Assembly (NCBI GenBank): GCA_019638595.1
Contig: JAHBTJ010000020.1
Span: 88,025-152,024, forward strand
DNA: 64,000 bases
Origin: Chitinophagaceae bacterium
GTDB lineage: Bacteria; Bacteroidota; Bacteroidia; Chitinophagales; Chitinophagaceae
Direction: 5' to 3'
The translations under genes and the position numbers were made by a program. Numbering within the stretch: position 1 is the first letter of the stretch; every line of letters starts with the position of its first letter. A model generated the notes under the pieces. It made no database searches and was not told the origin of the DNA. It saw only the letters and a list, made by a program, of their open reading frames with translations. Of the stretch, positions 15,082 through 28,281 are shown piece after piece.

Positions 15082-15190
15082 AAAAAAGCCCCGTAGATAG
15101 ACGAGGCACTAAATGTTTTCACAACGGAATAATCCTTATTGTGAATTGCTTTCAGTTGTAAATATAAGTACTCTGCGTGATATTTAAAAT
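15082..15190 (-). ncRNA. tracrRNA of the type II-C system
   Basis: On the minus strand, 15160-15139 reads ACAACTGAAAGCAATTCACAA. Its GAAAGCAATTCACAA part is the exact complement of the crRNA handle TTGTGAATTGCTTTC. It continues with TAAGGATTATTCCG and TTGTGAAAACATTTAG, the nexus-like segment typical of Bacteroidota Cas9 tracrRNAs. It ends in a stem GCCTCGT / ACGGGGC followed by six T (15082-15108). The 5' end is not determined; AT-rich sequence with TAAATTTT near 15185-15195 could hold the promoter. The RNA pairs with each crRNA for loading into Cas9. Its strand shows that functional crRNAs are read from the minus strand of the array. Confidence 0.88.
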
Positions 15191-15294
15191 TTAAAAAGGA
15201 TGTAGTTGCAATCAAGGACAATATCATGTATAACAGATTGTAATATAATTATTTGAGAATAGGAGTATGTAAGGGAGGGTAAGAATCCCCTTTG

Positions 15295-15320
15295 GTTGTG
15301 AATTGCTTTCAATTCACAAC
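15295..15320 (+). repeat. Isolated, internally deleted CRISPR repeat
   Basis: GTTGTGAATT, loop GCTTTC, then AATTCACAAC: the first 20 nt equal the crRNA-sense start of the array repeat, followed directly by its end, with about 20 nt missing. The result is a perfect 10-bp hairpin. It lies between the tracrRNA and the DUF3800 gene, outside the array. In crRNA sense it is on the plus strand. Confidence 0.75.
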
Positions 15321-15329
15321 ATTCTTTTG

Positions 15330-15402
15330 TACCTTTGATGTGAACTATTTGGATCGGGGTGTCCCCAATCGGAATGAAGCCGGAGCAATCCGGCTTTGTT
15401 TT
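15330..15402 (+). ncRNA. Candidate small RNA with perfect -7 box and terminator
   Basis: TACCTTTG (15330-15337) matches the Bacteroidota -7 consensus TAnnTTTG exactly, with a TTG from the isolated repeat upstream. About 60 nt later a stem AAGCCGGA-GCAA-TCCGGCTT is followed by TGTTTTT (15377-15402). Between them GGGG-TGT-CCCC forms a second hairpin. No open frame fits. The transcript would run toward the end of the DUF3800 gene and its U-tract overlaps that stop codon, so antisense action is possible. It has no repeat handle of its own after the predicted start. Confidence 0.5.
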
Positions 15403-16136
15403 TAGGGAAAATTTTTTAATCCATAACGTTTTCCATTCTTGTTATAGAATTTATGCTTGAATACTTCAAAGGATGGATTGACCCTGTGAGGTTCTAAAAC
15501 ATAACGGGCTATCGGGTATGCAATCAAATCAGCCAATTGAAGTCCATTAATATTTTCTTTCTTCGATTTAAATTGAATGGATAAATTATACGCTTGTATT
15601 CTTTCTGGGGTTACATAGCCGGTTCCTCTTGATAAAATTCTTTGAAAATGTTCTTCCAGCTTTTTATCTTCTTTTTTGCCTCTCTTTTCAATAATGATAT
15701 TTAGCCCGCTAATTTTGATTTTGAGATCGTCAAGGAAAAAAATCGCCCGTTCAATTATGAATGATAGACCAATCTCATAAACATCGTCTGAAATCCTGCC
15801 ATATTTCCTTATGTAATTATCCTTCTTTATTGCTGAAGCTATAATCCTGTAATTTCTGGATGCAATAACATTATCCAATTGCTGATAAAAGCTTGCCTTT
15901 AATACTAAGTCGAATAAATACTTAAATTCTTTCTCGCATTTCCGTATGTCACGGGAGTGAAAAATGACATTTTCGCTTTGCCATATAGATCGCTTTATCG
16001 TATTAAAATCTTGTCGTAATAATTCATATTCTCCACTTGAAATAACAACTCCACATAGCAGGAACAAAGGAAAATTCGGGTTGAGGTTATTCAATCCGTG
16101 ATCCCCGCTTTCATCTATGAATAAATTAAAAAACAT
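15402..16136 (-). CDS. DUF3800 protein, putative RNase H-fold nuclease in the CRISPR cassette
   Basis: I choose ATG 16136 (MFFNLFIDESGDHGLNNLNP), giving 244 residues; the longer frame to 16181 would begin inside a repeat-derived small RNA. The family signature FIDESGD is at the N terminus and LQLADLIAYPIARYV near the C terminus. These acidic residues are thought to form the active site of an RNase H-like fold, though no DUF3800 activity is settled. The protein is cytoplasmic and Lys/Ile-rich, AT-rich like cas9 and unlike the flanking chromosome. It sits between the tracrRNA and cas9, divergent from cas9, sharing its promoter region. DUF3800 genes are often found in mobile or defence regions. 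Confidence 0.8.
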   Translation of the reverse strand: MFFNLFIDESGDHGLNNLNPNFPLFLLCGVVISSGEYELLRQDFNTIKRSIWQSENVIFHSRDIRKCEKEFKYLFDLVLKASFYQQLDNVIASRNYRIIASAIKKDNYIRKYGRISDDVYEIGLSFIIERAIFFLDDLKIKISGLNIIIEKRGKKEDKKLEEHFQRILSRGTGYVTPERIQAYNLSIQFKSKKENINGLQLADLIAYPIARYVLEPHRVNPSFEVFKHKFYNKNGKRYGLKNFP

Positions 16137-16152
16137 ATATTTATCAAATGTC

Positions 16153-16226
16153 AAAAAATGTGGGGAGTAAAAGCAATTCACAACATACTAATCTCAAGTT
16201 AATTAGATATAGTATATTTCCCCACA
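16153..16226 (-). ncRNA. Candidate guide-like small RNA carrying a CRISPR repeat handle, upstream of cas9
   Basis: On the minus strand TGTGGGGA (16226-16219) pairs perfectly with TCCCCACA (16166-16159), followed by TTTTTT: a closed 74-nt RNA with a terminator. A perfect -7 box TATATTTG is just upstream (16238-16231), placing the start at the stem. Inside it, 16184-16170 reads GTTGTGAATTGCTTT, the first 15 nt of the crRNA-sense repeat, able to pair with the tracrRNA. The 10 nt before this handle, AGATTAGTAT, are identical to the plus strand at 16247-16256, in the cas9 promoter. This is the layout of a Cas9 guide with a short seed match. Alternatively it is an attenuator leader of the DUF3800 gene, whose ATG is 17 nt downstream. 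Confidence 0.6.
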
Positions 16227-16230
16227 CATA

Positions 16231-16238
16231 CAAATATA
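16231..16238 (-). promoter_or_regulatory. -7 promoter box for the small RNA and/or DUF3800 gene
   Basis: TATATTTG on the minus strand matches TAnnTTTG exactly. The expected start about 4 nt downstream coincides with the first base of the small-RNA stem. No clear -33 TTTG is visible. Confidence 0.55.
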
Positions 16239-16281
16239 TAGAAGATAGATTAGTATGAGTTTTTTTATTTTTTAAAAATAC

Positions 16282-16289
16282 TATATTTA
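16282..16289 (+). promoter_or_regulatory. Possible cas9 -7 promoter box
   Basis: TATATTTA, 18 bp upstream of the cas9 ATG, differs from TAnnTTTG at one position. Its -33 region would fall at about 16255-16262, directly next to the AGATTAGTAT site shared with the small RNA. Confidence 0.4.
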
Positions 16290-16306: not shown

Positions 16307-19300
16307 ATGCCACATCCCAAAACTATTCTTGGCCTTGACCTCGGCACCACTTCCATCGGATTTGCCCAAATTACCGAAGGCGAAAACCCTGAGCAATCAT
16401 CAATAGAAAGAATTGGCGTTCGTGTGAACCCATTGACTACGGATGAACAAACCAATTTTGAAAAAGGCAAGCCTGTTTCGGTCAATGCGGACAGAACCTT
16501 AAAACGCGGGGCAAGACGAAATCTCGACCGCTATCAGGACAGGCGAAAAAACCTGATAGATGCTTTATTGAAAGCAAACATTATTACAAAGGATACCATT
16601 CTGGCTGAGGAGGGAAAAAACACAACGCACCAAACCTGGTATTTGCGTGCAAAAGCGACAAAAGAAAAGTTAGAAAAAGAAGAACTGGCTCGTGTGTTTT
16701 TGGCGATTAACAAAAAACGCGGTTACAAAAGCAGCCGGAAAGCCAAAAACGAGGACGAAGGACAAGCCATTGACGGAATGGCTGTTGCCAAACGTTTGTA
16801 TGAAGAAAACCTTACGCCGGGGCAACTGGCTTACCAATTACTGAAAGAGGGTAAAAAACATATCCCCGATTTTTACCGTTCCGATTTACAGGCGGAGTTT
16901 GATAAGGTGTGGAACAGGCAAAAAGAGTTTTATCCCGAAATTTTCACAGATGAATTTTATTTGGAATTAAAAGGAAAGGGACAACGGGCTACTTCGGCTT
17001 CGTTTTGGGGTAAATATCAATTCAATACGGCCGAAAACAAAGGCAACCGGGAGGAAAAGAAACTACAGGCCTACAGATGGCGGAGCGAAGCTATTTCTAA
17101 GCAGTTGGAAAAAGAAGAGGCGGCTTATGTGATAACAGAAATCAACAGTAATCTCAATAATTCGAGCGGTTATCTGGGCGCTATTTCGGACAGAAGCAAG
17201 GAGCTTTATTTCAATAAAGAAACCGTAGGGCAATATCTCTACAAACAATTGCAGCAAAATCCGCATACACGGCTGAAAAACCAGGTGTTTTACCGGCAGG
17301 ATTATCTGGATGAATTTGAAGCGATATGGAATGAACAGCAAAAATATCACCCCGAACTGACAGAAGAATTAAAAACCGAAATCCGCGATATTGTTATTTT
17401 TTATCAGCGAAAACTAAAATCGCAAAAAGGATTGATTAGTTTTTGTGAGTTTGAAAGCAAAGAAGTAGAGGTTAACGGCAAGAAGAAAACCATCGGTTTA
17501 AAAGTTGCACCCAAATCTTCGCCTTTGTTTCAGGAGTTTAAGATTTGGCAGGTACTGAACAATGTTTTGGTTCGTAAAAAAGGAAGCCGGAAACGGGTTG
17601 TAAAGGAAAACAACCAGGTTTCCTTATTCGATGAAGAAAAAGAAATTTTTGTATTCGATTTAGAAACCAAGCGAATTTTGTTCGATGAGCTGAACATCAA
17701 AGGCAACCTGACTTCGGCTAAAATCATTGAGATACTGGGCTATAAACCTGCTGATTGGGAATTGAATTATTCGACATTGGAAGGCAACCGCACCAGCAAA
17801 TCGTTGTATGAAGCATATCTGAAAATTTTGGAACTGGAGGGGTACGATGTAAAGGATCTGCTAAAGGTAAAATCCAACAAAGACGAAGTTGAGTTAGATG
17901 ATTTGAACGTTTCTGCTGCCGAAATCAAAAAGATGGTCAAATCCATTTTTGAAACCCTAAACATCAATACCGAAATTTTAGAATTTAATGCAGAACTGGA
18001 CGGAAAGGATTTTGAAAAACAAAAATCGTATCAGTTGTGGCATTTGCTTCATTCTTACGAGGGCGATGATTCGCCAAGTGGCAATGAAAAGCTGTACGAA
18101 TTATTGGAAAAAAAATTTGGGTTTAAAAGAGAGCATAGCCAGCTTTTAGCCAATATCACTTTATCTGACGACTACGGAAATCTTTCGACCAAGGCGATGC
18201 GGAAAATCTGTCCATATATCAAAGAAAACCAGTACAGCACGGCTTGCGAACTGGCTGACTATCGTCATTCCGCTTCCTCATTGACGAAAGAAGAAATTGC
18301 CAGCCGCCCGTTAAAAGATAAACTGGATTTGCTCAAAAAGAACAGCCTGCGTAATCCTGTGGTAGAGAAAATCCTCAACCAGATGGTGAATGTGGTAAAC
18401 ACGCTGATTGAAACCAACAGAGCAAAAGACCCGTACTTCCGTTTCGATGAAATACGTATCGAGCTGGCTCGTGAGCTAAAGAAAAATGCCAAAGAACGGG
18501 CGGAAATGACAACGAATATCAGTGCGGCAAAGCTGGCTCGCGAGAAGATTTTTAAACTGTTGCAAACGGAATTTGGCGTTAAAACCCCAACCCGAAACGA
18601 CATTATTCGCTATCGTTTATACGAGGAATTAAAGAATAACGGTTACAAGGATTTATATACTAATCAATACATTCCGAGGGAAATCCTGTTCAGCAAGCAA
18701 ATAGATATTGACCATATTATTCCGCAATCAAAACTTTTTGACGACAGTTTCTCTAACAAAACGGTTATCTATCGCCAAACCAATTTGGACAAGGGAAACA
18801 AAACGGCTTATGATTATATCGAAAGTAAATTTGGAAACGAAAAAGCAGAAGAATACAAATCAGGGATAGAGGCTTTGTACAAAGCTAAAGAAGATGGCAT
18901 TTCCAAAGCCAAATACCAAAAACTGCTCAAAAAAGAAAGCGAGATTGGCGATGGTTTTATCGAAAGAGATTTGAGAGACAGCCAATATATTGCCAAAAAA
19001 GCGAAAAATATGCTGTATGAGATTACCCGTTCGGTAGTTTCCACATCGGGCAGCATTACCGACAGGCTTCGTGAGGACTGGGGTTTGGTGAATATTATGC
19101 AGGAGCTGAATTTTGAGAAATTCAAATCATTGGGCCTAACCGAAATGGTGGAGAAAAAAGATGGTACGTTCAAAGAGCGGATAACCGATTGGAGCAAACG
19201 CAACGACCACCGCCACCACGCTATGGATGCGTTGACGGTGGCTTTTACCAAACATCAGCATATCAACTATTTGAACCATCTCAATGCCCGCTATAATGAA

Positions 19301-20605
19301 ACACATAAAGAATACAAAAACATTAGGGGCATTGAAGAAAAGCTGACACATTGGGAGTACGATGACGAAGGCAATAAAAAGCGCATATTCAATTTGCCAA
19401 TCCTGAATTTTAGAGAACAAGCCAAAAAACATTTGGAAAATGTATTGATTTCGCACAAAGCCAAGAACAAAGTGGTCACCAAAAACAAGAACAAAACCAA
19501 ATCTAAAAACGGTGAAAAAGTAAAGACAGAACTCACGCCAAGGGGACAATTGCACAAAGAAACCGTTTACGGCAGGTATCAATATTATGTAAACAAAGAG
19601 GAAAAAGTAGGAACAAAATTTGATGAAGAAACAATCAATAAAGTAAGCAACCCCCTATATAAAGCTGTATTGCTTCAGCGGCTTAAAGAAAACGGCAACG
19701 ACCCGAAAAAAGCATTTGCGGGTAAAAATGCTTTGAGTAAAAACCCGATTTATCTGAACGAAGCAAAAACGGAAACATTGCCTGAAATCGTTAAACTAAC
19801 CTGGTTGGAGGAAGATTACTCAATACGTAAAGATGTAACGCCTGAAAATTTTAAAGACGAAAAATCAATACAAAAAGTTTTAGACCAAAAAGTAAAGACT
19901 ATTTTGTTAAACCGCTTGCAGGAATACGGTAACGACCCGAAAAAAGCTTTCTCCGATTTGGATAAAAACCCGATTTGGCTCAATGAAGCAAAAGGCATAT
20001 CCATTAAGCGGGTAACCATTTCAGGCGTGAAAAATGCCGAATTTCTTCATTACAAAAAAGACCATAAAGGAAATTATGTGTTAGATGATGCCGGAAAGAA
20101 AATACCGGTTGATTTTGTAAGTACGGGCAATAATCACCACGTAGCCATTTATCGGGATGAAACAGGAAATTTGCAGGAAAGAGTCGTGTCTCTTTTTGAA
20201 GCAGTACAGCTTGTTAATGCAGATTTACCGGTTGTTGATAAGCAATACAATCAGGGGTTAGGCTGGCAATTTCTCTTTACCATGAAGCAAAACGAATACT
20301 TTGTATTCCCGAACGACAAAACAGACTTCAATCCCAAAGAAATTGATTTGCTCGACCCAAAAAACAAGAAGCAGATAAGCCCAAATTTGTTTAGGGTGCA
20401 AACTCTTTCTGTTGTAAAATATGGAAATAATACTGTAAGAGATTTCCAATTCAGACATCATTTAGATGCAACAAAAGCGAGTGACGTTAAAAAGGAACTA
20501 CAAGGAATAACTTATCAGCAAATTAAGAGTTTGCCGCCTTTAGGAAATATTGTAAAAGTCCGCATTAATCATATTGGAGAGATTGTAAAAGTTGGGGAAT
20601 ATTAA
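16307..20605 (+). CDS. cas9: CRISPR-associated endonuclease Cas9, type II-C
   Basis: A 1432-residue protein starting MPHPKTILGLDLGTTSIGFA. RuvC-I holds Asp11; the Arg-rich bridge helix is LKRGARRNLDRYQDRRKN. RuvC-II is IRIELARELKK with Glu719. The HNH motif is DIDHIIPQSKLFDDSFSNKT with His803, and RuvC-III is NDHRHHAMDAL with Asp974. All catalytic residues are present, so it should cut both DNA strands under crRNA:tracrRNA guidance. The length suits the large Bacteroidota II-C Cas9s. The C-terminal part contains a repeated module (GNDPKKAF...KNPI.LNEAK) near residues 1122-1154 and 1198-1229. Lys/Asn content and AT-richness differ from the flanking chromosomal genes. Its 5' region overlaps a repeat-bearing small RNA. 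Confidence 0.97.
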   Translation: MPHPKTILGLDLGTTSIGFAQITEGENPEQSSIERIGVRVNPLTTDEQTNFEKGKPVSVNADRTLKRGARRNLDRYQDRRKNLIDALLKANIITKDTILAEEGKNTTHQTWYLRAKATKEKLEKEELARVFLAINKKRGYKSSRKAKNEDEGQAIDGMAVAKRLYEENLTPGQLAYQLLKEGKKHIPDFYRSDLQAEFDKVWNRQKEFYPEIFTDEFYLELKGKGQRATSASFWGKYQFNTAENKGNREEKKLQAYRWRSEAISKQLEKEEAAYVITEINSNLNNSSGYLGAISDRSKELYFNKETVGQYLYKQLQQNPHTRLKNQVFYRQDYLDEFEAIWNEQQKYHPELTEELKTEIRDIVIFYQRKLKSQKGLISFCEFESKEVEVNGKKKTIGLKVAPKSSPLFQEFKIWQVLNNVLVRKKGSRKRVVKENNQVSLFDEEKEIFVFDLETKRILFDELNIKGNLTSAKIIEILGYKPADWELNYSTLEGNRTSKSLYEAYLKILELEGYDVKDLLKVKSNKDEVELDDLNVSAAEIKKMVKSIFETLNINTEILEFNAELDGKDFEKQKSYQLWHLLHSYEGDDSPSGNEKLYELLEKKFGFKREHSQLLANITLSDDYGNLSTKAMRKICPYIKENQYSTACELADYRHSASSLTKEEIASRPLKDKLDLLKKNSLRNPVVEKILNQMVNVVNTLIETNRAKDPYFRFDEIRIELARELKKNAKERAEMTTNISAAKLAREKIFKLLQTEFGVKTPTRNDIIRYRLYEELKNNGYKDLYTNQYIPREILFSKQIDIDHIIPQSKLFDDSFSNKTVIYRQTNLDKGNKTAYDYIESKFGNEKAEEYKSGIEALYKAKEDGISKAKYQKLLKKESEIGDGFIERDLRDSQYIAKKAKNMLYEITRSVVSTSGSITDRLREDWGLVNIMQELNFEKFKSLGLTEMVEKKDGTFKERITDWSKRNDHRHHAMDALTVAFTKHQHINYLNHLNARYNETHKEYKNIRGIEEKLTHWEYDDEGNKKRIFNLPILNFREQAKKHLENVLISHKAKNKVVTKNKNKTKSKNGEKVKTELTPRGQLHKETVYGRYQYYVNKEEKVGTKFDEETINKVSNPLYKAVLLQRLKENGNDPKKAFAGKNALSKNPIYLNEAKTETLPEIVKLTWLEEDYSIRKDVTPENFKDEKSIQKVLDQKVKTILLNRLQEYGNDPKKAFSDLDKNPIWLNEAKGISIKRVTISGVKNAEFLHYKKDHKGNYVLDDAGKKIPVDFVSTGNNHHVAIYRDETGNLQERVVSLFEAVQLVNADLPVVDKQYNQGLGWQFLFTMKQNEYFVFPNDKTDFNPKEIDLLDPKNKKQISPNLFRVQTLSVVKYGNNTVRDFQFRHHLDATKASDVKKELQGITYQQIKSLPPLGNIVKVRINHIGEIVKVGEY

Positions 20606-20994: not shown

Positions 20995-21888
20995 ATGATC
21001 AAACGAACCCTTTATTTCGGCAATCCTGCCTATCTCAAAACCAAAAATGATCAACTGGTGATTGAGATGCACGACAGCGGCGAAACCAAATCGGCGCCCA
21101 TTGAAGATATCGGGTTACTGATACTGGATCACCAGCAGATCACTATTACACAGGCATTGATGGCAAAGCTGCTTGCCAATAATACAGCAGTGATTACCTG
21201 CGATGATAAGCACCATCCTACGGGCATGATGTTCAACTTAGACGGGAACACTTTGCAAAGCCAGAAATTCCAGGCACAAATAGCAGCATCCATGCCGTTA
21301 AAAAAGCAATTATGGCAGCAAACCATTACCTGTAAAATAGAAAACCAGGCAGCATTGCTTCAACAGGAAAGGGAAGAATATAAGCTCCTGCTTACTTATG
21401 CTAAGGAAGTTAAAAGCGGTGACAGCGAAAATCATGAAGCTAAAGCCGCAGCTTATTACTGGAAAAGGGTGTTTCCCGATTTTCTTGAATTCAGCAGATA
21501 CCCACAAGGCCCACCGCCCAATAACCTGCTGAATTATGGATATGCCATATTAAGAGCGTTGGTTGCCCGCAGTCTTACAGCTTCCGGACTGCTGCCTACA
21601 TTAGGTATTCATCACCGCAATCAATACAATGCCTATTGCCTGGCTGATGATATTATGGAACCCTACCGGCCGTTTGTTGACAAAGTGGTTTGTCATATTA
21701 TAAGAGGCAACGGTAAATTTCTTGATATGACACCCTCTATGAAGAAAGCTTTGCTTGAAATTCCGGCAATGGATGTGCAGATTGACGGTCAGAAGAGTCC
21801 GTTAATGAACGCGGTGCAGCGAACCACTGCCAGCCTGGCAAAATGTTATGAAGGAAAAGCAAGAAAAATATTATATCCGAACCTATAA
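20995..21888 (+). CDS. cas1: CRISPR-associated integrase Cas1, type II
   Basis: A 297-residue protein starting MIKRTLYFGNPAYLKTKNDQ. The metal-binding residues of Cas1 are visible: Glu in SENHEAKAAAYYW, His in LGIHHRNQYNAY and Asp in CLADDIMEPYRPF. It forms a Cas1-Cas2 complex that integrates new spacers at the leader end. The last codons and stop (AAC CTA TAA) lie inside a REP hairpin, so the present C terminus ILYPNL was partly set by that insertion. A 175-bp gap holding the REP separates it from cas2. About 390 bp of gene fragments separate it from cas9. Confidence 0.95.
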   Translation: MIKRTLYFGNPAYLKTKNDQLVIEMHDSGETKSAPIEDIGLLILDHQQITITQALMAKLLANNTAVITCDDKHHPTGMMFNLDGNTLQSQKFQAQIAASMPLKKQLWQQTITCKIENQAALLQQEREEYKLLLTYAKEVKSGDSENHEAKAAAYYWKRVFPDFLEFSRYPQGPPPNNLLNYGYAILRALVARSLTASGLLPTLGIHHRNQYNAYCLADDIMEPYRPFVDKVVCHIIRGNGKFLDMTPSMKKALLEIPAMDVQIDGQKSPLMNAVQRTTASLAKCYEGKARKILYPNL

Positions 21889-21997: not shown

Positions 21998-22399
<402 letters not shown>

Positions 22400-23322: not shown

Positions 23323-26300
23323 GTTGTAAAAGAACTAAGCTACATAATAATTGAAAGCAATTCACAACGCCCTGTCTTGTGTGTGCCTGCCGTGGGCGTT
23401 GTAAAAGAACTAAGCTACATAATAATTGAAAGCAATTCACAACGGAATGACTAAAACAGAAGCCTACATATCAGTTGTAAAAGAACTAAGCTACATAATA
23501 ATTGAAAGCAATTCACAACTGGATTTGATCAGGTTAACGGGTGTTATTTGTTGTAAAAGAACTAAGCTACATAATAATTGAAAGCAATTCACAACTATTT
23601 GTCAAAATTTAGAGCGGTAATGAAAGTTGTAAAAGAACTAAGCTACATAATAATTGAAAGCAATTCACAACGCCCCAGTAGTGGATACCGGCAAAGTTTA
23701 TGTTGTAAAAGAACTAAGCTACATAATAATTGAAAGCAATTCACAACCGTATGGAAATAGTAAAAACAACCATACAGGTTGTAAAAGAACTAAGCTACAT
23801 AATAATTGAAAGCAATTCACAACTAATTAGGTATATAATGAAAATGCCGAATGTTGTAAAAGAACTAAGCTACATAATAATTGAAAGCAATTCACAACTC
23901 ACGATCTGCGTTGTTTGTAACACTTACCGTTGTAAAAGAACTAAGCTACATAATAATTGAAAGCAATTCACAACTTAAATTCTGCCGGTGTTCAGAAGAA
24001 TGAGTTGTAAAAGAACTAAGCTACATAATAATTGAAAGCAATTCACAACTTGAATTCTGCCGGTGTTCAGAAGAATGATGTTGTAAAAGAACTAAGCTAC
24101 ATAATAATTGAAAGCAATTCACAACATGTACAAAAATGCACAAAAAAACAGAAACGTTGTAAAAGAACTAAGCTACATAATAATTGAAAGCAATTCACAA
24201 CTAGTGAATAAACACATTAAAGCGATGCATGGTTGTAAAAGAACTAAGCTACATAATAATTGAAAGCAATTCACAACCACTTTGGTGTTCAGAGTTCAGA
24301 TGCTCGTGTTGTAAAAGAACTAAGCTACATAATAATTGAAAGCAATTCACAACTATAAATCTTTCACTTAAATATTACAAAAAGTTGTAAAAGAACTAAG
24401 CTACATAATAATTGAAAGCAATTCACAACGCCGCTTCAAAAATTTTTCAAGCGCTTACGGTTGTAAAAGAACTAAGCTACATAATAATTGAAAGCAATTC
24501 ACAACGCGGACAGAACATAATAGCTCCGTGTGGCAGTTGTAAAAGAACTAAGCTACATAATAATTGAAAGCAATTCACAACTACATCGATGCAACAAGAA
24601 AAAGAAATAAGTTGTAAAAGAACTAAGCTACATAATAATTGAAAGCAATTCACAACTACATCGATGCAACAAGAAAAAGAAATAACGTTGTAAAAGAACT
24701 AAGCTACATAATAATTGAAAGCAATTCACAACTCCTCAGGACGAGGCTTCAGCCTAGAGAGAGTTGTAAAAGAACTAAGCTACATAATAATTGAAAGCAA
24801 TTCACAACTACGAGAATGCAACAAGAAAAAGAAATAAGTTGTAAAAGAACTAAGCTACATAATAATTGAAAGCAATTCACAACTACAAGAATGCAACAAG
24901 AAAAAGAAATAACGTTGTAAAAGAACTAAGCTACATAATAATTGAAAGCAATTCACAACTACAACGATGCAACAAGAAAAAGAAATAACGTTGTAAAAGA
25001 ACTAAGCTACATAATAATTGAAAGCAATTCACAACTAACAATCATGAAAAGAAAGACTTCCCCACGTTGTAAAAGAACTAAGCTACATAATAATTGAAAG
25101 CAATTCACAACCAGCAAGAAAAAGAAATAACATCCCAGATGGTTGTAAAAGAACTAAGCTACATAATAATTGAAAGCAATTCACAACTTGCGCAATCTTC
25201 TTATACGCATTGCAAACGTTGTAAAAGAACTAAGCTACATAATAATTGAAAGCAATTCACAACGCGTACCGAACTTAGGCATCAAACGAACCGGTTGTAA
25301 AAGAACTAAGCTACATAATAATTGAAAGCAATTCACAACATTGCCATGCCGCGTTACTATAAGGATCGTGTTGTAAAAGAACTAAGCTACATAATAATTG
25401 AAAGCAATTCACAACAACATCCCAGATGTTACTTGATGATCTTCGTTGTAAAAGAACTAAGCTACATAATAATTGAAAGCAATTCACAACGAATCGAAAT
25501 TTTTTCGATTTAACGTTTGAGTTGTAAAAGAACTAAGCTACATAATAATTGAAAGCAATTCACAACGACTCGGCAGTTCATGTCGCTGATATTCCAGTTG
25601 TAAAAGAACTAAGCTACATAATAATTGAAAGCAATTCACAACTCAACCACAAAAAGAACAAGCAGAGCAAAAGTTGTAAAAGAACTAAGCTACATAATAA
25701 TTGAAAGCAATTCACAACAATGCTCAACTTGAGGAAGAAGCGGAAGATGTTGTAAAAGAACTAAGCTACATAATAATTGAAAGCAATTCACAACACCCAA
25801 ATGTGTGATTGCATATCTCCTTACGTTGTAAAAGAACTAAGCTACATAATAATTGAAAGCAATTCACAACGTTATCGTTTTTGTGTTATCAAATTCGCTT
25901 GTTGTAAAAGAACTAAGCTACATAATAATTGAAAGCAATTCACAACATACGTTTTACTGGCGCATAATGGCTGAGAGTTGTAAAAGAACTAAGCTACATA
26001 ATAATTGAAAGCAATTCACAACTGCTGAACGCACACATGTTCGCGAAGGAATGTTGTAAAAGAACTAAGCTACATAATAATTGAAAGCAATTCACAACTA
26101 TTCGTGTGATTTAGTACAACGATCATTGTTGTAAAAGAACTAAGCTACATAATAATTGAAAGCAATTCACAACCGCTTGCCCGGCGTACACTCTATAAAG
26201 TCCGTTGTAAAAGAACTAAGCTACATAATAATTGAAAGCAATTCACAACAATAGTCAAATGGAGAATAAAAAATATTTGGTTGTAAAAGAACTAAGCTAC

Positions 26301-28281
26301 ATAATAATTGAAAGCAATTCACAACAAATCAGTATACAGGCATGATTAGAATGGGTTGTAAAAGAACTAAGCTACATAATAATTGAAAGCAATTCACAAC
26401 ACGCGCATAACGATCTAATATCTCGCGGATGTTGTAAAAGAACTAAGCTACATAATAATTGAAAGCAATTCACAACGTAGCAAAGCTGCGCCAGTACCCT
26501 GCTAACGTTGTAAAAGAACTAAGCTACATAATAATTGAAAGCAATTCACAACATCATTCTTCTGAACGCCAGCACGGTTCAAGTTGTAAAAGAACTAAGC
26601 TACATAATAATTGAAAGCAATTCACAACAATATAACTCCCCCACCTCTCAAATGGCGAGTTGTAAAAGAACTAAGCTACATAATAATTGAAAGCAATTCA
26701 CAACCAGGCAACCGGTCATCGTTGCGATGAGCTGGTTGTAAAAGAACTAAGCTACATAATAATTGAAAGCAATTCACAACTACGGTAATGCAACAAAAAA
26801 CAGAAACAACGTTGTAAAAGAACTAAGCTACATAATAATTGAAAGCAATTCACAACAAAGCCCTAATGTACTTGATATATTAGGGGTTGTAAAAGAACTA
26901 AGCTACATAATAATTGAAAGCAATTCACAACATAGCATGGAGTGCTATACGTGAGAATATTGTTGTAAAAGAACTAAGCTACATAATAATTGAAAGCAAT
27001 TCACAACTACCGAAATGCAACAAAAAACAGAAACAACGTTGTAAAAGAACTAAGCTACATAATAATTGAAAGCAATTCACAACCAGAATCTGAAGTTAAA
27101 GAACAAATTGCACGTTGTAAAAGAACTAAGCTACATAATAATTGAAAGCAATTCACAACATATAGCCAACTCTAACAGTTACGATGGCGTTGTAAAAGAA
27201 CTAAGCTACATAATAATTGAAAGCAATTCACAACCCTGAAGCTCTACGGCAGAATAGAATGTAAGTTGTAAAAGAACTAAGCTACATAATAATTGAAAGC
27301 AATTCACAACAATTAAATAATGAACGAAAATAACAACATGTTGTAAAAGAACTAAGCTACATAATAATTGAAAGCAATTCACAACAGACTTAAAATGTTT
27401 TGCAAATTCAAAATAGTTGTAAAAGAACTAAGCTACATAATAATTGAAAGCAATTCACAACAAATAGAACTTATTCGTGATAATGTTCAGAGTTGTAAAA
27501 GAACTAAGCTACATAATAATTGAAAGCAATTCACAACTATCAAAATGCAGCAAAAAACAGAAACAACGTTGTAAAAGAACTAAGCTACATAATAATTGAA
27601 AGCAATTCACAACGTAGACGATCACTTACAAAAGATAATATAGTTGTAAAAGAACTAAGCTACATAATAATTGAAAGCAATTCACAACATAACTTTTTTT
27701 TGCGCATTCTTGGTCAAGGTTGTAAAAGAACTAAGCTACATAATAATTGAAAGCAATTCACAACAGGATACAGCCTAGCCATAAAAAAAATCAGGTTGTA
27801 AAAGAACTAAGCTACATAATAATTGAAAGCAATTCACAACATGGATTTTGGGGCTTTGGTTGAAGTTTTAGTTGTAAAAGAACTAAGCTACATAATAATT
27901 GAAAGCAATTCACAACTTATTATGCTTGTGGCGAGTATGGAGGGCGGTTGTAAAAGAACTAAGCTACATAATAATTGAAAGCAATTCACAACAGGGTGCT
28001 TATACCGGTGAAGTTTCAGCTGGTTGTAAAAGAACTAAGCTACATAATAATTGAAAGCAATTCACAACTTGCTGTTGCGGTAGTGAGGCAGAATAAAGAA
28101 GGAGACAACAGATTATATCTGCACGAAGTAACGTTAAAAGAAAAACTCCTTGATAGTAGTTCTAATCCTGTCTTGTCTGAAACGACACAGGCCACCACGC
28201 AAGGAGAGGTGGCAAAGGTATTGAAAAATATTGTAGATGCACACAATAATCGTTGTAAAAGAACTAAGCTACATAATAATT
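23323..28281 (-). CRISPR. Type II-C CRISPR array, 63 full repeats plus one truncated repeat
   Basis: The plus strand shows a 46-bp repeat beginning GTTGTAAAAGAACTAAGC and ending TTGAAAGCAATTCACAAC, from 23323 to 28068 with a period of 75-76 bp. I count 63 full copies, which look invariant, and 62 spacers of 29-30 nt. A 183-nt non-standard interval (28069-28251) follows, then a repeat cut after 30 nt (28252-28281). The tracrRNA anti-repeat matches the minus-strand form, so crRNAs read guide-GTTGTGAATTGCTTTC from right to left. The degenerate repeat is at the right end, so new spacers probably enter at the left, next to cas2 and the transposase. Several spacers are near-duplicates from the same target. 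Confidence 0.97.
28069..28251 (+). other. 183-nt coding fragment in place of a spacer
   Basis: Between the last full repeat and the truncated one lies 183 nt instead of about 30. One plus-strand frame has no stop over 61 codons: LAVAVVRQNKEGDNRLYLHE, then VTLKEKLLDS and VAKVLKNIVDAHNN. The composition is that of a real protein, not of the repeat. The RLYLHEVTLKEKL segment resembles conserved parts of large phage or mobile-element proteins, but I cannot name the family with confidence. It may be a captured fragment or the remains of an old insertion. Confidence 0.6.

What the first reader, a model, noticed from the sequence alone, without database searches (positions are those of the whole stretch)
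16153..16256. A guide-like small RNA with a CRISPR handle may direct Cas9 to its own promoter
Seen: on the minus strand a perfect -7 box TATATTTG (16238-16231) precedes a 74-nt unit closed by TGTGGGGA/TCCCCACA and TTTTTT. It contains GTTGTGAATTGCTTT (16184-16170), identical to the crRNA-sense repeat start and pairing with the tracrRNA anti-repeat over about 15 nt. The 10 nt directly before the handle, AGATTAGTAT, equal the plus strand at 16247-16256, next to the predicted -33 region of cas9. Known: in Francisella (scaRNA), S. pyogenes (long tracrRNA) and CreR-type cas-regulating RNAs, short seed matches let CRISPR nucleases repress promoters without cutting. Inference: this is an independent, repeat-derived autoregulator in a Bacteroidota II-C locus, formed by a solo repeat and not by the tracrRNA. 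The inverted repeat could also simply be a stem with no guide role.
Basis: partly seen in the sequence, partly recalled or inferred. Interest (0 to 1): 0.92.

Follow-up and report, generated by a model that had tools for sequence, protein, structure and literature searches.

The report
Probable solo-repeat guide RNA for cas9
Next to a Cas9 gene in a Bacteroidota genome lies a probable small RNA gene made of one stray CRISPR repeat and a short guide that matches the cas9 promoter; related bacteria keep this match while its letters change, so it probably acts as Cas9's own off-switch.

Summary
On minus, 15 nt identical to the crRNA-sense repeat start (16184-16170) follow AGATTAGTAT. That 10-mer occurs exactly twice in 64 kb: at the handle and in the cas9 promoter. 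I compared 177 distinct cas9 loci. Fourteen carry what I take as a solo-repeat unit; in nine the guide end matches the cas9 promoter over 8-11 nt. Seeds differ between lineages but change with their sites: WIN/L030 at one position, L019/L125 at two, L051/L152 at one. Guides swapped between loci rarely match (>=10 nt: 0 of 2992; own: 6 of 17). Best explanation: a crRNA-like RNA pairs with tracrRNA and takes Cas9 to its own promoter, with too little complementarity to cut. Transcription, binding and repression are inferred. Against it: the PAM is unproven (NRRTT at 14 of 17 sites, but not in two flanks from the window's own spacers), and a joint fold keeps unit and tracrRNA folded on themselves. 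Known kin: CreR (types I, V-A), tracr-L (II-A), scaRNA (II-B). Similar units seem aimed at a DUF3800 promoter (L011) and tRNA-like genes (L015, L160).

The parts
16153..16226 (-). solo-repeat unit (predicted small RNA, about 74 nt)
   Evidence: -7 box starts 12 nt upstream of the stem (same offset in L019 and L125, 11 in L030); stem and T run; fold far below shuffles
16231..16238 (-). Bacteroidota-type -7 box TATATTTG of the unit (motif recalled)
   Evidence: exact TAnnTTTG; no clear -33 element was seen by eye
16219..16226 (-). 5' arm of outer closing stem TGTGGGGA
   Evidence: 8 bp, 45 of 1000 shuffles as long; other complementary stems in L030, L019, L125, L047, L051, L146
16159..16166 (-). 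3' arm of outer closing stem TCCCCACA, followed by T run 16158-16153 (terminator-like)
16185..16194 (-). seed of the guide, AGATTAGTAT, directly before the handle
16170..16184 (-). handle: first 15 nt of the crRNA-sense repeat
16247..16256 (+). promoter site identical to the seed (protospacer-like, 10 nt; guide G against site T at position 11)
16257..16266 (+). flank of the site, GAGTTTTTTT (PAM position; also covers the expected -33 region of cas9)
   Evidence: NRRTT in 14 of 17 sites; overlap with -33 is inference
16282..16289 (+). probable -7 box of cas9, TATATTTA
   Evidence: motif recalled
16307..20605 (+). cas9 (type II-C, 1432 aa)
20995..21888 (+). cas1
22013..22399 (+). cas2
15082..15158 (-). 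tracrRNA (anti-repeat 15152-15138; terminator near 15082); ends approximate
   Evidence: complement found upstream of cas9 in 163 of 177 loci
15402..16136 (-). DUF3800 gene (ORF 15402-16181; likely ATG at 16136) directly downstream of the unit
   Evidence: Pfam PF12686 8.1e-21; full-length homolog near cas9 in 5 of 177 loci, fragments in a sixth, L156
23323..28068 (-). CRISPR array, 63 exact repeat starts, crRNA sense on minus

Best explanation
The unit is a gene for a crRNA-like regulatory RNA. Its 15-nt repeat-derived handle pairs with the anti-repeat of the locus's tracrRNA and loads Cas9. The 10 nt in front of the handle then guide Cas9 to the cas9 promoter, at or just upstream of the -33 region. 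Pairing breaks off at position 11 (in some other loci there is a one-base bulge at about 9-10), so Cas9 binds without cutting and blocks RNA polymerase. In the window the same site would lie between the -33 and -7 elements of the unit's own divergent promoter, so the complex should also shut off the unit and the DUF3800 gene behind it. Shown from sequence: handle, seed, site, stem, co-variation, fit of several handles to their tracrRNA. Inferred: transcription, loading, lack of cleavage, repression.
For: Seed and site are the only two copies of the 10-mer in 64 kb. Among 177 distinct cas9 loci, nine minus-strand units match the cas9 promoter over 8-11 nt ending at the handle junction. Own matches within 120 nt upstream of cas9: 9 of 17 scored solo repeats >=8 nt (one of these, L160, is not among the nine units just named; L180 was not scored), 6 of 17 >=10 nt; swapped guides 14 of 2992 and 0 of 2992. 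Joint change of seed and site: WIN AGATTAGTAT/L030 ATATTAGTAT; L019 TGAGTGGTGT/L125 TGAGTAGTAT; L051 CTTATTGA/L152 CTTACTGA with both sites. All six 10-nt guides have G against T at position 11 at the main site. The handle agrees with the own tracrRNA where the array repeat does not in L047, L051 and L146 (L051 repeat). In five of the nine (L019, L125, L152, L154, L180) no DUF3800 was detected in the fetched stretch, so the unit is not just its leader. Precedent: in the S. pyogenes system a crRNA with 11 matching and 9 non-matching nt plus short tracrRNA represses Pcas with wild-type Cas9 (PMC11417352, passages).
Against: No RNA or protein data. The PAM is not established: two 3' flanks inferred from overlapping spacers of the window's own array (ATTTC..., CATY...) lack the RR of NRRTT; the first rests on a 13-nt overlap I read by eye, below the script's cut-off. 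NRRTT itself was read off these sites, and on plus it coincides with the T-rich -33 region. L180's 11-nt site has flank AAAAC. Joint folding of unit and tracrRNA predicts no pairing between them (-49.1, the sum of the two alone). Handles of L019, L125, L015 and L011 deviate from their tracrRNA by one base after the first. The seed is partly paired in the predicted unit fold, which could hinder targeting. Shift control: the eight minus-strand guides with an own match, moved 5-60 nt, reach >=8 nt in 1 to 11 of 112 positions, with maxima up to 14 nt (L030) and 13 nt (L152); a position background gives >=10 nt at 28 of 18,760. Some unit lineages are related, so loci are not independent.
Confidence: 0.78

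Rival explanations
1. CreA-like guard rather than cas9 autoregulator: the main purpose is to keep the DUF3800 gene (RNase H-fold nuclease by literature) silent as long as Cas9 and tracrRNA work; cas9 control is secondary.
For: In WIN, L030, L047 and L051 DUF3800 lies downstream of the unit on the same strand. In L011 the unit lies on plus and its guide matches a site between unit and DUF3800 start (8 nt, flank GGGTT, plus a 10-nt distal run). DUF3800 is a known accessory in V-A2 and VI-F loci (PMC12669027, PMC10910872, passages).
Against: In L019, L125, L152, L154 and L180 the unit and the cas9 site occur with no DUF3800 detected in the fetched stretch. Toxicity of DUF3800 is unknown.
Confidence: 0.3
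2. The inverted repeat is a binding site for a DNA-binding protein (or a DNA/RNA stem) and the solo repeat is incidental.
For: The two 10-mers form an inverted repeat 52 bp apart, and compensatory change alone would fit a stem.
Against: The 10-mer is not palindromic and differs widely between lineages; similarity ends within one base of the handle junction at all 17 sites; strand and distance of the site vary (minus strand in L146, L011, L015, L016, L160); the handle is conserved.
Confidence: 0.09
3. The unit is only a leader of the DUF3800 mRNA: tracrRNA pairs with the repeat in the leader and controls DUF3800 post-transcriptionally, with no DNA targeting.
For: Unit and DUF3800 are head to tail, 16 nt from T run to the likely ATG; 18 consecutive pairs with tracrRNA are possible.
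Against: Five units with cas9 sites have no detected DUF3800; this does not explain the promoter match and its co-variation.
Confidence: 0.08
4. Degenerate relic of an array repeat; the promoter match is chance.
For: Repeat copies without any listed site occur nearby (WIN and L030 plus about -1010, L051 -1231, L170, L172).
Against: Swap test, three co-varying pairs and handle-tracrRNA agreement.
Confidence: 0.03

Closest known systems
CreR (crRNA-like cas-regulating RNA, types I and V-A; review PMC12737573, passages read)
   Same: repeat-derived RNA outside the array with a partial match to the cas promoter, expected to repress through the effector
   Different: here type II-C, Cas9 and a separate tracrRNA; one repeat, on the 3' side; closed by a stem or followed by a terminator-like hairpin; seed often paired in the predicted fold
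tracr-L of S. pyogenes II-A (PMC11417352, passages; original paper recalled)
   Same: Cas9 taken to its own promoter with about 11 nt of complementarity, repression instead of cleavage
   Different: tracr-L is an extended tracrRNA acting as a natural single guide; here the tracrRNA is a separate gene and the guide is crRNA-like
scaRNA of Francisella novicida II-B (described in PMC9458426, passages; rest recalled)
   Same: ectopic degenerate repeat, Cas9, short complementarity, transcriptional interference
   Different: target is a lipoprotein operon, not cas9
scaRNA of Neisseria meningitidis II-C (PMC13431127, start of abstract and passages)
   Same: type II-C, small CRISPR-associated RNA bound by Cas9
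   Different: acts on efeUOB mRNA; in that paper's EMSA only efeO mRNA, not cas9 DNA, formed a complex
CreTA / CrePA (PMC9458426, PMC12737573, passages)
   Same: ectopic repeat RNA aimed at the promoter of a neighbouring gene; compare L011 (DUF3800) and L015/L160 (tRNA-like genes)
   Different: the CreTA described there uses Cascade; no toxicity is shown here

Membership tests
CreR | repeat-derived handle outside CRISPR arrays | tested here: met
   exact 15-nt repeat start, the only minus-strand copy outside the array in this genome
CreR | seed-type match to the promoter of the own cas genes | tested here: met
   10 nt in WIN; 8-11 nt in nine loci; swap null 0 of 2992 at >=10
CreR | functional PAM next to the site | tested here: inconclusive
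   NRRTT in 14 of 17 sites against 402 of 12,460 background positions, but spacer-derived flanks of the window array do not show RR
CreR | effector complex represses cas expression; relieved by crRNA or anti-CRISPRs | not testable with these tools
   needs expression assays
CreR | type I or V-A system (as reported in the review passages read) | tested here: not met
   cas9-cas1-cas2 with tracrRNA: type II. So it works like a CreR but is not filed as one.
tracr-L | guide is a 5'-extended tracrRNA with repeat-like and anti-repeat parts in one RNA | tested here: not met
   the unit stretch holds no anti-repeat; the tracrRNA lies separately at about 15158-15082
scaRNA (II-B) | degenerate repeat pairing with tracrRNA | tested here: inconclusive
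   18 consecutive pairs in the duplex prediction, 5 of 500 shuffles as good; but joint folding shows no pairing between the two
scaRNA (II-B) | represses non-cas genes | not tested
   other genomic targets were not searched
CreTA/CrePA | adjacent toxin gene whose promoter carries the site | tested here: inconclusive
   the site lies upstream of the -7 box of the unit, ahead of DUF3800; toxicity unknown

The most novel reading that the evidence does not exclude
Bacteroidota type II-C loci carry a family of solo-repeat guide RNAs that use Cas9 as a repressor in two interchangeable ways: to set Cas9's own level, and to hold down a linked guard gene (a DUF3800 nuclease in WIN, L030, L047, L051 and L011; a tRNA-like RNA in L015 and L160). 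This would be the first CreTA/CrePA-like addiction or anti-anti-CRISPR module run by Cas9 that I know of. Within one Cas9 clade (L125, L019, L016, L011, L015; support 99) all five members carry a unit, aimed at different places.
Probability: 0.3. Interest if true: 0.92.

Novelty: new variant of a known kind. Interest (0 to 1): 0.8.

Why it matters
How type II-C systems keep Cas9 in check is, to my knowledge, largely open. A separate crRNA-like autoregulator would show that the CreR principle evolved in Cas9 systems too. It would give natural guides tuned to bind and not cut (10-nt seeds with a fixed break, or a one-base bulge), and it makes predictions that one reporter assay can test. If the linked DUF3800 and tRNA-like genes are guards, it also extends CRISPR-controlled addiction to type II.

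Tried and rejected
PAM from protospacers: two IMG/VR pattern scans with spacer families of the window gave nothing. Phage searches with arrays of the window, L044, L036, L039, L160, L154 and L173 gave no usable protospacer: L039 and L154 nothing; the others repeat-like stretches in Riemerella phages (and, one record labelled Shigella phage Henu10); the window also a 29-nt stretch in two records (E 0.03), which by its coordinates straddles repeat and spacer. The hits were not opened. Overlapping spacers gave few flanks, partly against NRRTT.

I first took the plus-strand repeat copy at 15295 for the tracrRNA; comparison showed it on minus at about 15158-15082.

The first site search excluded self-matches wrongly on minus; replace it.

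Of 22 rows I treat 14 as units. Dropped: WIN and L030 plus copies at about -1010, L051 -1231, L170, L172 (no site listed), L123 (two mismatches, no site), L073 (taken as array end), L022 (tracrRNA). One search scored 17 rows, including the first five dropped copies, but not L146 (unit inside the promoter stretch) or L180 (two mismatches). For L011 and L160 I did not take the longest match, because it is the arm of the unit's own hairpin; for L011 the flank also influenced the choice. L160 also has an 8-nt plus-strand match at -51 with another flank. The second L154 site (-113) is the arm of its own hairpin, though it is counted among the 17.

Seed hairpin: visible in most predicted folds, but by contiguous stem at most 5 of 300 shuffles reach it in only 5 of 14 units (L154, L125, L011, L015, L160; WIN 179 of 300), so it is not claimed as a defining feature.

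Literature: searches showed no report of a crRNA-like cas9 autoregulator in type II-C in the rows listed; long lists were capped and only open-licence PMC papers are held. A paper I recall (Shmakov et al. 2023, CRISPR-derived RNA regulatory elements) is not held under the DOI tried, so prior prediction there cannot be excluded.

Full report
What is in the window. The locus is a type II-C system: cas9 16307-20605, cas1, cas2, and an array of 63 exact repeat starts whose crRNA sense is the minus strand. The tracrRNA is on minus near 15158-15082; its complement is found within 1.5 kb upstream of cas9 in 163 of 177 loci. Between tracrRNA and cas9 lies a DUF3800 gene on minus. Between DUF3800 and cas9 lies the reported unit: -7 box TATATTTG, stem TGTGGGGA, guide ending AGATTAGTAT, handle GTTGTGAATTGCTTT, stem TCCCCACA, six T. 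The 10-mer is found only twice in 64 kb, at the handle and at 16247-16256 in the cas9 promoter. The handle 15-mer has one copy on minus outside the array in the whole genome.

Comparative set. Ten cas9 searches covered 1,988 genome look-ups, some genomes more than once, and one contig scan kept the best 80 of 184 relatives. I fetched mostly the hits closest to the window's Cas9, not all. This gave 191 sequences with the window, 177 distinct by a stretch of cas9; 10 of 177 have under 1.5 kb upstream. Solo repeat starts near cas9 were listed: 22 rows, of which 14 are treated as units (the others are named in Tried and rejected). Nine units lie on minus between tracrRNA and cas9 and match the plus strand of the cas9 promoter over 8-11 nt ending at the handle: WIN, L030, L047, L154, L019, L125, L051, L152, L180. 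L146 has the reverse arrangement: unit on plus, 11-nt site on minus ahead of a TATCTTTG box. L011, L015, L016 and L160 carry plus-strand units with sites on minus further upstream.

Is it more than chance? With guides exchanged among loci, 14 of 2992 comparisons reach 8 nt and none reaches 10; with their own promoters, 9 of 17 reach 8 (L160 among them) and 6 of 17 reach 10. Two controls inside the same loci are less clean: a position background gives 197 (>=8) and 28 (>=10) of 18,760, and guides moved by 5-60 nt reach 8 nt in 1 to 11 of 112 positions for the eight minus-strand units with an own match, with maxima up to 14 nt. The stronger evidence is joint change. WIN and L030 differ at one seed position and the site carries the same change. 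L019 and L125 differ at two, both mirrored. L051 and L152 differ at one, mirrored in two sites each, though these two Cas9s are not close. No minus-strand unit between tracrRNA and cas9 was found that lacks a site; the minus-strand handles without one are the remote second copy in L051 and the contig-end repeat of L073.

Anatomy of the match. In all six 10-nt cases guide position 11 is G and the main site has T. In L152, L011, L015 and L160 the similarity resumes after one extra guide base, with distal runs of 10-13 nt (p 0.001-0.0035 against shuffles); L016 shows 8 nt with the opposite shift (p 0.03); L051 shows 8 nt (p 0.09, not significant); WIN, L030, L047, L019, L125, L180, L146 and the main L154 site show no significant distal match. 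So some look like protospacers with a built-in interruption, others have the seed only. Similarity does not run into the handle by more than one base at any of the 17 sites. At 14 of 17 sites the flank is NRRTT, against 402 of 12,460 background positions. The motif was read off these same sites, is confounded on plus by the T-rich -33 region, and is not mirrored by the window's own spacer flanks.

The handle. It can form 18 consecutive pairs with the tracrRNA, but a joint fold leaves both folded on themselves. In L047, L051 and L146 it agrees with that locus's tracrRNA where the array repeat does not (the L051 repeat was read); in L019, L125, L015 and L011 it differs from the tracrRNA by one base after the first. 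The outer stem has different sequence but kept pairing in WIN, L030, L019, L125, L047, L051 and L146. Significance varies: 0-24 of 1000 shuffles for L146, L030, L019 and L125; 45 for WIN; 107 for L047; 176 for the L051 stem picked by that script. The other seven units have a terminator-like hairpin after the handle. The -7 box starts 11-12 nt ahead of the stem in WIN, L030, L019 and L125.

Mechanism. The simplest reading is a crRNA-like RNA that loads Cas9 with tracrRNA and takes it to the cas9 promoter without cutting. A direct precedent is the experiment with the S. pyogenes system in which a crRNA with 11 matching nt and short tracrRNA repressed Pcas (PMC11417352, passages). In the window the site also lies upstream of the -7 box of the unit and DUF3800, so feedback on both is expected (inference). 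No DUF3800 was detected in L019, L125, L152, L154 and L180, so control of cas9 does not seem to depend on it.

Distribution. On a Cas9 tree of 110 loci (those at least 55% identical) the presence of units needs at least 8 changes; one clade (L125, L019, L016, L011, L015; support 99) is entirely unit-bearing with differing sites.

Known or new. CreR is described for types I and V-A (PMC12737573, passages), tracr-L for II-A, scaRNA for II-B. I saw no report for II-C in the rows listed by my searches, with the reservation about a recalled paper not held. I therefore call it a new variant of a known kind.

Noticed in passing
L015 (G137, about -430 to -226 from cas9) and L160 (G1713, about -338 to -145): Plus-strand solo-repeat units whose guides match (8-nt seed plus 10-12 nt distal run) a site just upstream of a -7 box leading to an adjacent tRNA-like gene (Rfam tRNA 57 and 60 bits; anticodons TAT and GAA; mismatches in the anticodon stem). 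The shared D-arm stretch has no other exact copy in either genome (one 3-mismatch match in G137). Possible Cas9-run CreTA.
   Followed up: partly
L011, site -301 (minus), unit at -235 (plus): Unit aimed at the stretch between it and a DUF3800 gene rather than at the cas9 promoter.
   Followed up: partly
window 15294-15405, plus strand: A palindromic repeat copy GTTGTGAATTGCTTTCAATTCACAAC followed by TACCTTTG and a stretch nearly identical in L030 ending in a terminator-like hairpin: possibly a second small RNA gene at the 3' end of DUF3800.
   Followed up: no
L016, -1077 to -468 (minus): An ORF resembling NYN/LabA-type proteins (by eye, not searched) upstream of a solo-repeat unit whose site lies near the unit's own promoter.
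   Followed up: no
Riemerella phages, e.g. OR089151.1 29.3-29.5 kb, HQ396194.1 31.6-31.7 kb: Stretches matching arrays of Bacteroidota type II-C loci many times over: possible phage mini-arrays or RNA anti-CRISPRs; not opened.
   Followed up: no
window array 23323-28068: Several spacers are near-variants of one target containing ATGCAACAA, as if repeatedly acquired from related phages.
   Followed up: partly
L170 (-498) and L172 (-523): Similar plus-strand repeat copies with similar guide ends but no promoter match of 8 nt or more listed.
   Followed up: no
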